36,174 bases of DNA from Acidobacteria bacterium RIFCSPLOWO2_02_FULL_65_29 (GTDB lineage Bacteria > Acidobacteriota > Vicinamibacteria > Vicinamibacterales > CAVVIG01), in assembly GCA_001767435.1 (NCBI GenBank), contig MEKT01000056.1, positions 1 through 36,174 of the forward strand. Reading direction: 5' to 3'. The position numbers and the translations under genes are program-made. A model generated the notes under the pieces. The model was not told where the DNA came from. It made no database searches and was given only the letters and a program-made list of their open reading frames with translations. Positions 3,590 to 9,423 of this stretch are shown one piece after another (positions within the stretch are counted from its first letter, which is position 1; each line of letters starts with the position of its first letter).

Positions 3590-4354
3590 TCAGCTTTCCG
3601 ATGACAACGAGATGTTTTTCACGAACTCAGCAAGACTGTCAAGGTCAGGGAACAATGTAGCCCGACGGTATCCCAGAGCATTGAGTTCTCCGCGCAGCTC
3701 CTCCTTGGCGCTTCCTAAAATGACGTACTGAATCAGAACTTCTGAAGCCCACGCCTCTGCATTCAAGGGTGTCGGAGTGTTGTGGAGCGTGTACCGACCA
3801 TGTTGGAGAAGCATCCGCAGGTCAATCTCGGTGCCAAGTACGGCCATGCAGGTCTCGGCCCCCGCAGCATCACCGACAGACTGGCCAAACGCCGATTTGA
3901 TCATCCTGAGCGACGACGGATGTGACGGCGCCGGGATTACGCCCTGGCCAATCGTTCTCTGATTGAGGTTAAACGGACCAAGAGACCAAAGCGCGGCGTC
4001 ATTGGATTCATGATTCAAGGTGGCGAAGTAAGCGGCGACCAGAACTGACTCCGTCCAATCCAGAAGGCGAGTGGGTAACCGATAATGCTGGGCCAACTGG
4101 AGCCAGCGATCTAGATCGGTCGGAGCCGGGCACTTCTTGTACCGCGTGGGAGCAAATGCCTGAAACAGAACAAGCAGATCTGGCTCGGAAAGACCCTGGG
4201 GGCGTGGCCGGAACACTCCCGGAACGAGATCATGGGTAACCTGAGGAAGGCCTCTCCACCAAGTAGTCAGGGGAAAGCGCTGACGAGCTTCTGTCGCCGC
4301 TTTGAGCAACTCAGCGAGTGATGAGATCGTTATCGATGAGCGCAGGTTGTTCAT
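3590..4354 (-). CDS. FRG-domain protein (cassette gene)
   Basis: The product is about 254 residues from ATG 4354, which follows directly after the end of the upstream attC; a longer reading would start inside that site. The FRG domain is clear: the name-giving motif appears as WWRGLPQ near residue 30, and AQHYRLPTRLLDWTESVLVAAYFA near the centre matches the conserved QHYGLPTRLLDWT block of the family. FRG proteins are common in mobile and defence islands, but their activity is not firmly established, so no reaction is assigned. Cytoplasmic, no signal peptide. No strong ribosome site is visible, as is common for the first gene position after an attC. Base composition looks less G+C-rich than the core genes. 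Confidence 0.85.
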   Translation of the reverse strand: MNNLRSSITISSLAELLKAATEARQRFPLTTWWRGLPQVTHDLVPGVFRPRPQGLSEPDLLVLFQAFAPTRYKKCPAPTDLDRWLQLAQHYRLPTRLLDWTESVLVAAYFATLNHESNDAALWSLGPFNLNQRTIGQGVIPAPSHPSSLRMIKSAFGQSVGDAAGAETCMAVLGTEIDLRMLLQHGRYTLHNTPTPLNAEAWASEVLIQYVILGSAKEELRGELNALGYRRATLFPDLDSLAEFVKNISLSSES

Positions 4355-4359
4355 GTGCT

Positions 4360-4422
4360 TGCTAACGTTGGCGTTCACCCGCGGCCGCTCACGATCGCAC
4401 CAGCGGCCGTCGGGTGCAACGC
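4360..4422 (-). other. attC site, right part; interrupted by the IS element (last 9 bp at 5893-5901)
   Basis: The plus strand reads TGCTAAC at 4360-4366 and then follows the attC at 6914-6986 closely as far as GGTGCAACGC, ending at 4422. There the match stops abruptly and resumes after the IS with GTGTTGGGC at 5893-5901. Joining 4422 to 5893 gives a 72 bp site against 73 bp for the intact relative. The minus-strand arm again has an extra G and an extra A six bases apart. Confidence 0.85.
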
Positions 4423-4512
4423 CTTGATTCTTATTCAGCCCTCCCCCTGCACCTACCAACTGGGTAGGCTCAGCGCAGGAACATGCGCGTATCCGCGCAG
4501 GAGGAGAGCCGA

Positions 4513-5554
4513 ATGAGATTCTACAACCGTCAGCATCGCCACTATTGCGGACTCGATCTCCACGTGAAGACCACGTACGTGTGCATTCTCGATGTCACCG
4601 GCCAGGTGCTGGTGCACCGCAACGTGAAATCGACACCGGAGGCGTTCCTCGAGATCGTCGCGCCGTACCGCGACGATCTGGTCGTGGCGGTCGAGTGCAT
4701 GTTCACGTGGTACTGGCTGGCCGACCTGTGCGCCGCGGAAGGCATCGCGTTCGTCTTAGGCCACGCTCGCGATGAAAGCGATCCACGGCGGCAAGGCCAA
4801 GAACGACAAGATCGACTCGCACAAGATCGCGATCCTGTTGCGCGGCGGCCTGGTGCCGCAGGCCTACGTCTACCCAGCCGCGATGCGGTCGACGCGCGAT
4901 CTCTTGCGGCGGCGGCTCCATCTGGTGCGAAAGCGCGGCGAGCTCCTCGCGCACATTCAGAATACGCGCGCGCAGTACAACCTCCCGGAATTCAACCGGC
5001 GGCTCGCCTACCCCACGAACCGCGACGGCGTCGGCGAGCACTTTATTGATCCGAGTGTGCGCAAGAGCGTCGACGTCGATCTCGCGCTCATCGACCAGTA
5101 CGAAGGGCTGATCAACGACCTCGAGGTGACCCTCGTGCGGGACGCCAAGCGCCACGACGCGGATGCGTTCCACCGCCTCCGTTCGGTCCCCGGCATTGGC
5201 AAGATCCTAGCGATGACGATCCTCTATGAGATCCACGACATTACTCGCTTTGATCGCGTGCAGGAGTTCGCGTCGTACGCGCGGCTGGTCAAGTGTGCCA
5301 AGGAGTCCGGCGGCAAGAAGCTCGGCACAGGCGGCGCGAAGATGGGCAACGTGCATCTGAAATGGGCGTTCTCCGAGGCCGCTGTGCTGTTCCTGCGTCA
5401 TACGAAGGACGGCAAGAAGATCCTGGCAGGGATCGAGAAGAAGCACGGCAAAGGGAAAGCGCTCTCGATCCTCGCCCACAAAATTGGGCGAGCCGTGTTT
5501 TACATGCTCTCGCGAGGGACGGTCTTCTCGATGGAGAAGTTCCACGCGGCGTAG
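4513..5554 (+). pseudogene. IS110-family transposase (DEDD), frameshifted
   Basis: ATG 4513 follows a strong GGAGGAG site. The N-terminal RuvC-like DEDD domain shows its acidic residues in GLDLHVKTTY, VAVECMFTWYW and, after the shift, KNDKIDSHK. The C-terminal Transposase_20 part contains LRSVPGIGKI and the serine-bearing region ASYARLVKCAKESGGK. Translation is broken near 4762-4770: the first frame runs to GHARD, while the continuation MKAIHGGKAKNDKID is in the next frame. Restoring one GC in the GC repeat of CACGCTCGCG would rejoin them, so a 2-base deletion in a repeat is the simplest cause. Total restored length of about 347 residues is normal for the family. Unless recoded, the enzyme is inactive. 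Confidence 0.9.
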
Positions 5555-5892
5555 CGAGCAAGGGAGCGGGCGAGCCAGACGTCTCACTCGAGCCAGTCGG
5601 GACCGAGCTCGTCACCGATCGCGACCACGCGTGCGCCGCTGAGCGCCACGAGCCGACGATCATGAGCTTGAAGGTCCGGCAGCGAGCAGCTTTGATGGGA
5701 CGTCCGCTCTCTCCCCCGCCATGCACACGCGTTCACGGGATGAGCTGCCCCTCCCCGAGCCTGGCGACAACTGACGCGCGCACGCGACGTCGCTTCTCTT
5801 GAGGAGGCCGGTATGAGGGCCCGTATGAGTTTCTAGGCCGCGCGGGTTACACGACCCTCGCACTTCGCCACGCGAAGCTTGAGCCTCAATAG
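5555..5892 (+). ncRNA. Right noncoding end of the IS; candidate bridge (seek) RNA region
   Basis: About 338 bases without a gene follow the transposase up to the element's right end. In IS1111-type elements this position encodes the structured RNA that pairs with target and donor DNA. The word ACACGCGTT at 5725-5733 equals the minus-strand target sequence across the reconstructed insertion point (GCCCAACAC joined to GCGTTGCACC). Several G+C-rich inverted repeats are present, but I could not fold the RNA. The location is family-based; the RNA itself is inferred. Confidence 0.4.
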
Positions 5893-5901
5893 GTGTTGGG
5901 C

Positions 5902-6081
5902 CCGCACCCACATCGGTGTGGAAGCCTGCTCTGGAAACGAAGACGGCACTGAACGGGACGCGTTGATTCGGAAGCTATTTCTTACGGTCACGCGTCTTCT
6001 TGACTCGACGACCGGACGGAGAAGATCTGCCCACTTGACGCGGGGAGGGCTGATAGGTGGTTAGGCGTCTCGCCAACCAGC
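5902..6081. other. Noncoding stretch between the IS-split attC and the next cassette gene
   Basis: About 180 bases with no convincing gene. A GTTAGGC at 6060-6066 could be one end of another attC belonging to the gene at 6082-6882, but I could not find its partner. A bulged inverted repeat around it (GGTTAGGCG ... CGCCAACC) directly follows the stop codon of that gene and could be a terminator hairpin. A second small hairpin (CCACA ... TGTGG) lies near 5908-5920. Confidence 0.4.
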
Positions 6082-6882
6082 CTAGAATGAGACACCGCCT
6101 TGTTCGTCGGTTTGCTCGCCGGCCTCCGGAAGTACAGCGACGATTTCGATGGTCCGTCTTACCAAGTCGAGCGCGACCAGAACCGAGTTCTGTACGTGCT
6201 GCGGCACTTCTCTGAGCTGACCGATAAAGTGCTCAATGTCAACCGGCTGAAGAATGTGGCGCCCGGCCCGAAGCGTCATCAAGGCCTGGAAGAGCTCGCC
6301 CCACGAGATATGAGGCACCTCGTAGCGCAGCGTACCGTCCGAGAAGGTGCATGCGCGTCGTGCAAGGGCCCACTCGGTTTTGCCGGTCGCCGCAAAGTCG
6401 TCAAACATCTTATACGGTTCCAATTCCTCTGCTGCCGGCCCATCCGCACCTGCGGATTCAATCATGAGGAAGGGGGCGCGCCAATGAAGCGAGAAGGAGG
6501 ATCGTGGCTCCAGGGATGGTATCTGCAGTGGCCTGGTGAAATTGGTCAGGTGTAAACACTCCTGCTGAAACCGTACGTCAGTGAAGTAAGGAAACGCGTA
6601 GAAGACCCAGTCGTGAAACGTCGGCTTCTGAAGGGCGCGAAGCTGTGTCAAGTCCAGACGGAACCGCAGGAGGCCTTCGGCGCCTCGCTGAGGTGACTTG
6701 AACTGCAGCGCAAACACGGCAAACGGGCCGTCGGCCCCATTGAATGCATAGAGTCGGTCGAACGGGTAGACCGCCTCCACGGGCTGGGTGACGGCAGAGT
6801 AGCGCACGCGGAATCCAGCTGCTGTGAAATAATCGGCGATCTGCTTGGACGCCCAATCCGTGTAGAGAGCTTCAGGAAGCAT
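6082..6882 (-). CDS. Hypothetical cassette protein, possible PD-(D/E)XK-like fold
   Basis: The product is 266 residues from ATG 6882 (an in-frame TTG lies two codons earlier), starting 31 bases after the end of an attC. I do not recognise the family. The N-terminal part begins with a helix (WASKQIADYFTAAGFRVRY), followed by YPFDRLYAF and then FAVFALQFKSPQR with a downstream FRLDLTQL; the order helix, D, Q-x-K resembles the core of PD-(D/E)XK nucleases and DUF4365-like proteins, with Q in place of E. The C-terminal half has a conserved-looking PHISWGELFQALMTLRAGRHIL. No signal peptide or membrane segment. The nuclease link is only a pattern inference. Confidence 0.6.
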   Translation of the reverse strand: MLPEALYTDWASKQIADYFTAAGFRVRYSAVTQPVEAVYPFDRLYAFNGADGPFAVFALQFKSPQRGAEGLLRFRLDLTQLRALQKPTFHDWVFYAFPYFTDVRFQQECLHLTNFTRPLQIPSLEPRSSFSLHWRAPFLMIESAGADGPAAEELEPYKMFDDFAATGKTEWALARRACTFSDGTLRYEVPHISWGELFQALMTLRAGRHILQPVDIEHFIGQLREVPQHVQNSVLVALDLVRRTIEIVAVLPEAGEQTDEQGGVSF

Positions 6883-6913
6883 TCTCAACCGCCTGCGTTG
6901 CTAATCTCAAAAC

Positions 6914-6986
6914 GCCTAACGGATAGCGTTCACCAGCGGCCGCTCATGATGGCGCCAGTGGCCGTCTGGTGCAACGCGTGTTAGGC
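6914..6986 (-). other. attC site downstream of the nucleosidase gene
   Basis: This 73 bp site is bounded by GCCTAAC (6914-6920) and GTTAGGC (6980-6986). The arms GCGTTCACCAGCGGCC and GGCCGTCTGGTGCAACGC pair throughout, leaving on the minus strand one extra G and one extra A, six bases apart, in the 5' arm. These are the extrahelical bases that orient an attC, so the site points along the minus strand, as the genes do. It begins 11 bases after the stop of the nucleosidase gene and ends 31 bases before the start of the next. Confidence 0.9.
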
Positions 6987-6997
6987 GGAGCGTTCTT

Positions 6998-7828
6998 CTA
7001 TCGGACCCCTTCTCTTAGATTAGCGACAATTGTCGCTACGAGCGCAGCAGCATTCTCGCTTGCCGTCGCCAGAAACTGTTCGTAGCTGATCAGCGCCTGT
7101 CCGTCAGCGCGATCCGTGATGCTTCTGATGACAAGGCATGCAACACCAAATTGGCGGCAGGTTTGGACAACGGCTGCCCCCTCCATTTCGATGGCGGTTG
7201 CGCCAAGCGTGTCGCGCAATGCGCCCCGTCGAGCGATATCAGCAAGAAACACATCGCCTGTAACGATGACTCCCTCGACGATCCGCGGCGTGTGATCTCT
7301 ACCATCCGCCGTCCGAACTGGCGGCAATCGCAGACCACTGGCGGAGCGTCGCGCCACCTCCAACAGTGCCTCTGGCGCCGGGACGAGAAGCGGATCGAGA
7401 TCGCCTGTTACGGCGTTTCTCATCCCACGCCGCCGTACTCCATCTGTTGTTTGCAGTCCGACGTCGTGCTGTGCCACCGTTGCACCAATCACGACATCGC
7501 CTTGGTTCAGCGCCGGATCGACAGCGCCCGCCGTTCCCGAGAAGAGAAGCGCTGACGGATTGAACTGACCGATCAGCAGCGTGGTAATGATCGCGGCGTT
7601 GACCTTGCCAGCGCCGGAACGCCCGATTACAACCTGCTGTCCATCTAGCGTGCCGACGCGAAATACGTAGCCTCTGACAGAGACTTCACGACTCTCTTGA
7701 AGGCGCTTTTCGATAGGAGCAATCTCGCTAGCAATGCCCAGAATGCCGACGATGGACTGGGCCAGCGCGGTCGTCGGAACGACAAGGAGTAGAAGTGTTG
7801 CCGCAACGAGACGTGCTCTGGGACTCAT
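6998..7828 (-). CDS. Exported MTA/SAH-nucleosidase-like phosphorylase-superfamily enzyme (cassette gene)
   Basis: The product is 276 residues from ATG 7828, with a GGAGG ribosome site, starting about 50 bases after a GTTAGGC box. The first 24 residues form a signal peptide (MSPRAR, hydrophobic LVAATLLLLVV, ALA-QS). The rest fits the PNP_UDP_1 superfamily and most resembles 5'-methylthioadenosine/S-adenosylhomocysteine nucleosidase: IVGILGIASEIAPI (the N-terminal strand with the catalytic-type acid), SGTAGAVDPALNQGDVVIG, and near residue 220 the purine-site block IEMEGAAVVQTCRQFGV followed by RSITDRAD. These enzymes cleave the N-glycosidic bond of adenosine derivatives. Export to the periplasm is unusual for this intracellular activity. 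Substrate specificity cannot be fixed from sequence alone. Confidence 0.85.
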   Translation of the reverse strand: MSPRARLVAATLLLLVVPTTALAQSIVGILGIASEIAPIEKRLQESREVSVRGYVFRVGTLDGQQVVIGRSGAGKVNAAIITTLLIGQFNPSALLFSGTAGAVDPALNQGDVVIGATVAQHDVGLQTTDGVRRRGMRNAVTGDLDPLLVPAPEALLEVARRSASGLRLPPVRTADGRDHTPRIVEGVIVTGDVFLADIARRGALRDTLGATAIEMEGAAVVQTCRQFGVACLVIRSITDRADGQALISYEQFLATASENAAALVATIVANLREGVR

Positions 7829-7876
7829 TCTTACCTCCACCGAACCCTCGCCCGTTTCCAGGTGGTGTGGATTTCC

Positions 7877-8188
7877 GCCTAACGCGTATTGAAGTGGACC
7901 GCACGGCCCTGCGCGCGGCCAACCGCGCCACCCGCCCAAGTCGACTTCACTCCTATGTGTCCGGAGCGGCGGATGTTAGCACGCCGCGGCCCATTGGACC
8001 GTCGTCGTGGTTGACTGCCGCCACGGGATTGGCTGCGGCGGCTGCAGCCAACCACCGACGACGTGCCGGCAGCATCTGCGAGACAAGTGCCGCTGGCGCC
8101 ATAGCTTGACCAATTCAGGCAGGAGAAGGTGGTCGCGCGACTGGCGGCGGGTCTTGCAGCCACCCACCTCCGCCCGGCGTCACAGCCG
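7877..8188. repeat. 310-bp duplicated noncoding segment, copy 1 (with attC-like core)
   Basis: From GCCTAAC to the ACAGCCG at its end this segment is nearly identical to 9978-10287. It contains an attC-like block (GCCTAAC 7877-7883 to GTTAGCA 7975-7981, with TGAAGTGGAC facing GTCGACTTCA) and, further on, a long imperfect hairpin (about 8001-8062) with arms GTCGTCGTGGTTG and CAACCACCGACGAC. It lies between the PH-like gene and the nucleosidase gene, each time adjoining a cassette gene start on the minus strand. No gene is seen inside. The minus strand reads TGCTAACAT at the GTTAGCA box, a possible promoter. Confidence 0.85.
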
Positions 8189-8193
8189 CACGC

Positions 8194-8571
8194 CTACCTG
8201 AGCACATACCCAGCGAGGACCGCCTGAACCTCGTAGATGCTGAGCTTCTTGTTGAACTGCAGCTGAAGTGGGGCAGGCGTGCCTGACAGCCAAATCTTCA
8301 GCTCCGCGTCCCGGTCAAACTGACCAGCGGTTTCCACACTAAACCGAGTAATGCTTCTGTAGGGGATGGACTGGTACTCGACCTTGCTACCGGTAATCCC
8401 CTGCCGGTTAACAAAAATGAGTCGTCGATCCGTGAACAAGAACATATCGCGGATCAATTGGTACGCTTTCTCGATCCGCTCTTGCGCAGCCAAGATCTGC
8501 GCGAAGTCTGCTTGCGCTTTCACGACGTCCACCTCACTCGCATTCCCCATCAGGCTGTCAAGCAACCCCAC
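8194..8571 (-). CDS. Small PH-like domain protein (cassette gene)
   Basis: The product is 125 residues. The GTG at 8571 is chosen because a perfect GGAGGT site precedes it; the internal ATG at 8550 lacks one. After an N-terminal helical part the bulk of the protein is a bacterial PH-like domain of the YokE/bPH type: MFLFTDRRLIFVNRQGITGSK, YQSIPYRSITRFSVE, then alternating strands ending in a C-terminal helix. Such domains occur alone in many bacteria without a settled function; binding of lipid or protein is possible. It has no signal peptide or membrane span. Its C-terminal domain type recalls that of the TerB/PH gene at 2366-3460, though the two are not close in sequence. Confidence 0.8.
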   Translation of the reverse strand: MGLLDSLMGNASEVDVVKAQADFAQILAAQERIEKAYQLIRDMFLFTDRRLIFVNRQGITGSKVEYQSIPYRSITRFSVETAGQFDRDAELKIWLSGTPAPLQLQFNKKLSIYEVQAVLAGYVLR

Positions 8572-9360: not shown

Positions 9361-9423
9361 GCCCAACGATACTGGAATTCAGCGGCGGGGCGAAGCCCCG
9401 TCCGCTGCAATTCCGGGTTGAGC
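9361..9423 (-). other. attC site between the toxin gene and the next cassette
   Basis: This 63 bp site is the most regular in the array: GCCCAAC (9361-9367) ... GTTGAGC (9417-9423), arms GGAATTCAGCGG and CCGCTGCAATTCC, and a terminal hairpin CGGGGC-GAA-GCCCCG. On the minus strand the 5' arm has one extra G and one extra A, six bases apart. It starts 8 bases after the stop of the minus-strand gene 9431-9947, so it is that gene's attC. Confidence 0.9.

What the first reader, a model, noticed from the sequence alone, without database searches (positions are those of the whole stretch)
4360..5901. IS110/IS1111 element inserted exactly inside an attC site
Seen: the sequence up to 4422 follows the attC at 6914-6986, stops at GGTGCAACGC, and resumes at 5893 with GTGTTGGGC. 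Excising 4423-5892 restores a 72 bp attC against 73 bp for its relative. Known: IS1111-attC elements target attC sites of integrons at one specific position. Inferred: this element belongs to, or is analogous to, that group, in a phylum where such insertions have not been common knowledge. Its presence independently supports the attC calls.
Basis: partly seen in the sequence, partly recalled or inferred. Interest (0 to 1): 0.8.

Follow-up and report, generated by a model that had tools for sequence, protein, structure and literature searches.

The report
RNA-guided jumping gene inside an attC

Summary
The core reading holds: an IS1111-type element (DEDD transposase, sub-terminal inverted repeats, long downstream non-coding region) sits in an attC of a cassette array in an acidobacterial MAG. 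The right boundary is wrong. 'GTGTTGGGC' at 5893-5901 is not the attC resuming. It is a conserved internal segment, most likely the seekRNA/bridge-RNA guide, which copies the element's right tip plus the target. It recurs inside 55 of 71 relatives with enough downstream sequence; the real right end lies about 120-170 bp further on. Corrected element: 4427-6057 (1,631 bp), 13-bp sTIRs (12/13 paired), 7-bp and 3-bp terminal extensions, TG core on both sides, then the true attC box GTTAGGC at 6060-6066. All seven left ends found in this genome lie at the same point of attC-like palindromes, between the L'' and R'' boxes. 13 of 13 distinct acidobacterial sites pass the same test (95th percentile of controls). 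Relatives (50-86% transposase identity) occur in many phyla. The window copy has a 2-bp frameshift and is probably inactive. Verdict: a new member of a known kind (IS1111-attC), with a corrected structure and an unexplained excess of attC specificity.

The parts
4360..4426 (.). left part of the interrupted attC: R box TGCTAAC (4360-4366), L box GCGTTCACC (4371-4379), loop, L'' box GGGTGCAACGC (4412-4422, holds the extra base), spacer, TG core (4425-4426)
   Evidence: palindrome score 32 against a control 99th percentile of 28
4427..4433 (+). 7-bp left terminal extension ATTCTTA
4434..4446 (+). left sub-terminal inverted repeat TTCAGCCCTCCCC
4513..5554 (+). DEDD (IS110/IS1111) transposase gene, broken by a 2-bp (GC) deletion near 4764-4767; intact in relatives (347 aa in L026)
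5555..6034 (+). long downstream non-coding region, inferred to encode the seekRNA/bridge RNA
5883..5900 (+).
5898..5926 (+). hairpin directly after the guide
5933..5946 (+). GGAAACGAAGACGG: candidate second guide strand (AAG pairs with CTT just left of the core), weakly supported
6035..6040 (+). TTGACG, -35-like box next to the right end, as for a circle-junction promoter
6042..6054 (+). right sub-terminal inverted repeat GGGGAGGGCTGAT (12 of 13 pair with the left one)
6055..6057 (+). 3-bp right terminal extension AGG
6058..6066 (.). TG core and the remaining attC box GTTAGGC (R'' in cassette orientation)
6914..6986 (-). intact attC of the next cassette, unoccupied control
9361..9423 (-). further intact attC in the same array

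Best explanation
An IS1111-family element of the attC-targeting type. Its transposase, guided by an RNA from the ~480-bp region downstream of the transposase gene, excises the element as a circle and inserts it at the dinucleotide NG between the L'' and R'' boxes of integron attC sites, always in one orientation (antisense to the cassettes). One guide strand (GCCTCAATAXGTGTTKGG) copies the element's right tip, the TG core and the attC box, so it can pair with the right junction in the donor and with the GTTRGGC box of an empty attC. Insertion pushes R'' 1.6 kb away from L'' and should stop that attC from folding, which would fix the cassette in place. Shown here: ends, core, target, conserved RNA region. 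Inferred: RNA guidance, circle, effect on the cassette. The window copy itself is probably inactive because its transposase gene is frameshifted.
For: Transposase domains PF01548/PF02371 and NF033542; 347-aa intact homologue. sTIRs plus 7/3 extensions. Non-coding region downstream of tnp, as in IS1111 (PMC11187229). Empty against filled attC in Pseudoalteromonas: GAC-TTG-TTAGG against GAC-TTG-ATACTCATTGAGCC. Own-genome empty attCs. 7/7 own-genome left ends in attC; 13/13 acidobacterial sites at or above the 95th and 12/13 at or above the 99th control percentile. 46 right ends resolved, all followed by GTT within a few bases. Guide motif in 55 of 71 copies. Its variable base X equals the base at the element's own right tip in 43 of 46 copies over all four bases. 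ISKpn4 and ISPst6, which target attC, use a seekRNA that matches the target (PMC11187229).
Against: No RNA or transposition data. Rfam has no match. RNAalifold on a sequence alignment gave only 3 pairs. On the transposase tree the X co-changes are few (8 changes in the guide, 5 in the right tip), too few for a significant independent-pair test. The guide explains only ~7-8 bp, yet the genome has 197 TGTTRGGC sites, so something else must direct the element to attC. The right-end search gave a small bonus to candidates followed by GTT.
Confidence: 0.88

Rival explanations
1. One reading: the element ends at 5892 and the attC resumes at 5893.
For: Excision 4423-5892 gives an attC-like string of about the right length.
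Against: The next ~150 bp are conserved after the same point in copies at unrelated places and in other genomes, and a true inverted right end with GTTRGGC follows 120-170 bp later in almost all. No sTIR exists at 5892.
Confidence: 0.02
2. The element targets the short sequence NTG-TTRGGC through its guide alone, and attC sites are hit only because they carry it.
For: The guide covers TG-TTRGG; some distant relatives have left flanks that do not score as attC.
Against: 197 TGTTRGGC sites in the genome, most presumably not attC; all 7 own-genome left ends are in attC. A further determinant in L'' or in the folded attC is needed.
Confidence: 0.12
3. The repeated attC junctions come from duplication of an IS-bearing cassette rather than repeated insertion.
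For: C25 and C135 share nearly the same attC, and the C93 and C16 sites share upstream cassette sequence.
Against: At least five clearly different attC sequences carry it in this genome, and other genomes show different attCs again.
Confidence: 0.05

Closest known systems
IS1111-attC group (Tetu and Holmes 2008; Post and Hall 2009): ISPst6, ISKpn4, ISPa21, ISPa25
   Same: IS1111-type transposase, downstream non-coding region, insertion at one end of attC (PMC11187229; ISPa21 disrupting attC in PMC11616780)
   Different: Host is Acidobacteriota. Transposase identity to those members could not be measured. The founding 2008 paper is not held in the library; the 2009 paper was known only from citations.
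seekRNA of IS1111 elements / bridge RNA of IS110 elements (PMC11187229, PMC11208160)
   Same: RNA region downstream of tnp; a segment equal to the target's top strand lies 5' of a candidate bottom-strand segment, the order reported for IS1111
   Different: Here the 5' segment also copies the element's own right tip, so donor and target halves are contiguous; IS621 uses two separate loops.
IS621 (IS110 group)
   Same: DEDD recombinase, two-base core; weak sequence similarity
   Different: IS621 has its RNA upstream of the gene, short sTIRs and another target.

Membership tests
IS1111 family | DEDD transposase with C-terminal PF02371 domain, 330-350 aa | tested here: met
   (347 aa in intact relative L026; window copy frameshifted)
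IS1111 family | sub-terminal inverted repeats of 11-13 bp | tested here: met
   4434-4446 and 6042-6054, 12 of 13 pair
IS1111 family | terminal extensions of 7 bp left and 3 bp right | tested here: met
   ATTCTTA and AGG, with the TG core taken as target
IS1111 family | long non-coding region downstream of tnp | tested here: met
   5555-6057, about 500 bp, against 86 bp upstream
IS1111 family | GL-P----S(t)G motif in the transposase | tested here: inconclusive
   window has RLVKCAKESG: SG kept, G and P replaced (motif)
IS1111-attC group | insertion at one fixed position and orientation in attC | tested here: met
   7/7 left ends in this genome, 13/13 distinct acidobacterial sites
IS1111-attC group | transposase falls in a clade with ISPst6/ISKpn4/ISPa21 | not testable with these tools
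   no reference sequence found in the plasmid collection
IS1111 seekRNA | NCR-derived RNA with target-matching segments | tested here: inconclusive
   conserved target-like segment that co-varies with the element's tip; no RNA data

The most novel reading that the evidence does not exclude
A lineage of RNA-guided transposases specialised on integron attC sites and spread over many phyla, whose guide reads donor tip, core and target on one contiguous strand, and which recognises a further attC feature (L'' or the folded hairpin) beyond base pairing with GTTRGGC.
Probability: 0.3. Interest if true: 0.6.

Novelty: new member of a known kind. Interest (0 to 1): 0.4.

Why it matters
It extends attC-targeting IS elements to Acidobacteriota and, through relatives, to Nitrospirota, Planctomycetota and others. 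It gives exact ends and a core for the group. It shows a trap for boundary calling: guide sequences copy the junction. The excess of attC hits over guide-matching sites turns the question of what else the transposase reads in attC into a testable one. Such insertions should freeze cassettes in integron arrays.

Tried and rejected
A pattern for empty attC with a 2-base spacer gave no more hits than its control. With a 3-base spacer the total was also not above its control, but most of the hits, read in context, are real attCs. A first attC score on L boxes alone did not separate sites from controls and was replaced. Retrieving ISKpn4 or ISPa21 through plasmids and papers failed. Covariation by RNAalifold was uninformative on a sequence-based alignment. 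A plasmid relative in Pseudomonas aeruginosa (34-35% identity) is not in a recognisable attC.

Full report
What was checked. The window is contig C56 of a 5.5-Mb genome bin. Two of the 'same family' genomes (G015, G017) gave loci with the same matches as records named Acidobacteria, so the host is taken as Acidobacteriota. The transposase at 4513-5554 is of the IS110/IS1111 type. In the window it is split by a 2-bp GC deletion near 4764-4767; other copies in the genome read CACGCGCTCGCG where the window reads CACGCTCGCG.

The right boundary is wrong. Aligning copies in other genomes and elsewhere in this genome shows the same sequence after that point, so it belongs to the element. About 120-170 bp further on, each complete copy has an inverted copy of the left sub-terminal repeat, a TAX trinucleotide and then GTTRGGC or a close variant. 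In the window this is GGGGAGGGCTGAT-AGG|TG|GTTAGGC (6042-6066). The element is therefore 4427-6057: ATTCTTA, then TTCAGCCCTCCCC, ending in GGGGAGGGCTGAT, then AGG. The 7-bp and 3-bp extensions and the 13-bp repeats (12 pair) match the definition of the IS1111 family given in PMC11187229. Because the window's right core is followed by one more G than in most copies, the right end is certain to about 1 bp only.

Core and target. In Pseudoalteromonas, where near-identical attCs occur filled and empty, the empty site reads GAC-TTG-TTAGG and the filled one GAC-TTG-ATACTCATTGAGCC, with TG again before TTAG at the right end. So the insertion point is a dinucleotide NG, usually TG. Some acidobacterial relatives carry GG or AG instead. 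Empty attCs of the host read GCTGCAAGCGCTGTTGGGC, GGTGCAACGCGTGTTAGGC and similar.

Position in the attC. The arm beside the left end of the element carries one extra base against its partner in all seven sites of this genome (read by eye). By the usual convention (own knowledge) that is the L'' arm, so the element lies between L'' and R'' and the cassettes run on the minus strand. That agrees with the minus-strand genes at 3590-4330, 6082-6888 and 6998-7939.

Specificity. All seven left ends in this genome lie at this point of attC-like palindromes with a [CT]AAC box upstream. Two pairs (C25/C135; C16/C93) share cassette or attC sequence, so at least five sites are clearly distinct. Over acidobacterial copies, 13 of 13 distinct left flanks reach the 95th percentile of control positions and 12 the 99th. 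Over all 73 relatives it is 46 and 35. The score misses short attCs, so the rest are undecided, not negative.

The inferred guide. It copies the right tip of the element (ATAX), the core and the attC box. Its base X equals the base at the element's own right tip in 43 of 46 copies (T 22, G 10, A 10, C 1). On a transposase tree the right tip changes at least five times and the guide eight times; supported independent pairs are too few for significance, so this is suggestive. In the acidobacterial guides, G at the R position could pair with both GTTGGGC and GTTAGGC (by wobble); this is inference. The order, top-strand segment 5' of a candidate bottom-strand segment, is the order reported for IS1111 seekRNAs.

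What remains unexplained. The genome holds 197 TGTTRGGC sites, yet every intact left end found lies in an attC. Base pairing over 7-8 bp cannot account for this. Recognition of L'' or of the folded attC is the simplest addition, and is untested.

Novelty. attC-targeting IS1111 elements are known (PMC11187229; PMC11616780 for ISPa21 disrupting attC), and acidobacterial attC sites are known (PMC8352920). No paper seen in the held library reports such elements in Acidobacteriota, but the founding paper is not held. Relatives at 50-86% transposase identity were found in records named Acidobacteria, Nitrospirae, Deltaproteobacteria, Planctomycetota, Gemmatimonadetes, Chloroflexi and Gammaproteobacteria. 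Many of these are MAG contigs and could be mis-binned. This is a new member of a known kind.

Noticed in passing
G000 contigs C127:24957, C70:9804, C101:96808 (loci L106-L108): Three integron-integrase genes in the bin, all looking damaged: C127 loses its C-terminal end after TTMIY, C70 has an internal TAG, C101 is split and near a contig end.
   Followed up: partly
L002, L004, L171, L172 (contig ends of C16, C48, C25, C135) and L007 (C50): Contigs of the bin break inside copies of this element, so its true copy number is probably higher than seen.
   Followed up: partly
L094 around the right end: The right end is repeated in tandem (GAATAAGGCTCATATGTGACGGGAATAAGGCTCATATGTGTTAGG), as if one insertion was followed by a partial second one.
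   Followed up: no
plasmids CP114559.1 and CP114554.1: Candidatus Manganitrophus plasmids carry unannotated members of this lineage with the same guide segment.
   Followed up: no
window 3590-8571: Cassette genes encode an FRG-domain protein, an unknown protein, a PNP/UDP phosphorylase-like protein and a bacterial PH-domain protein.
   Followed up: no
L029 3725: A relative with an internal deletion of about 300 bp yet both ends present.
   Followed up: no
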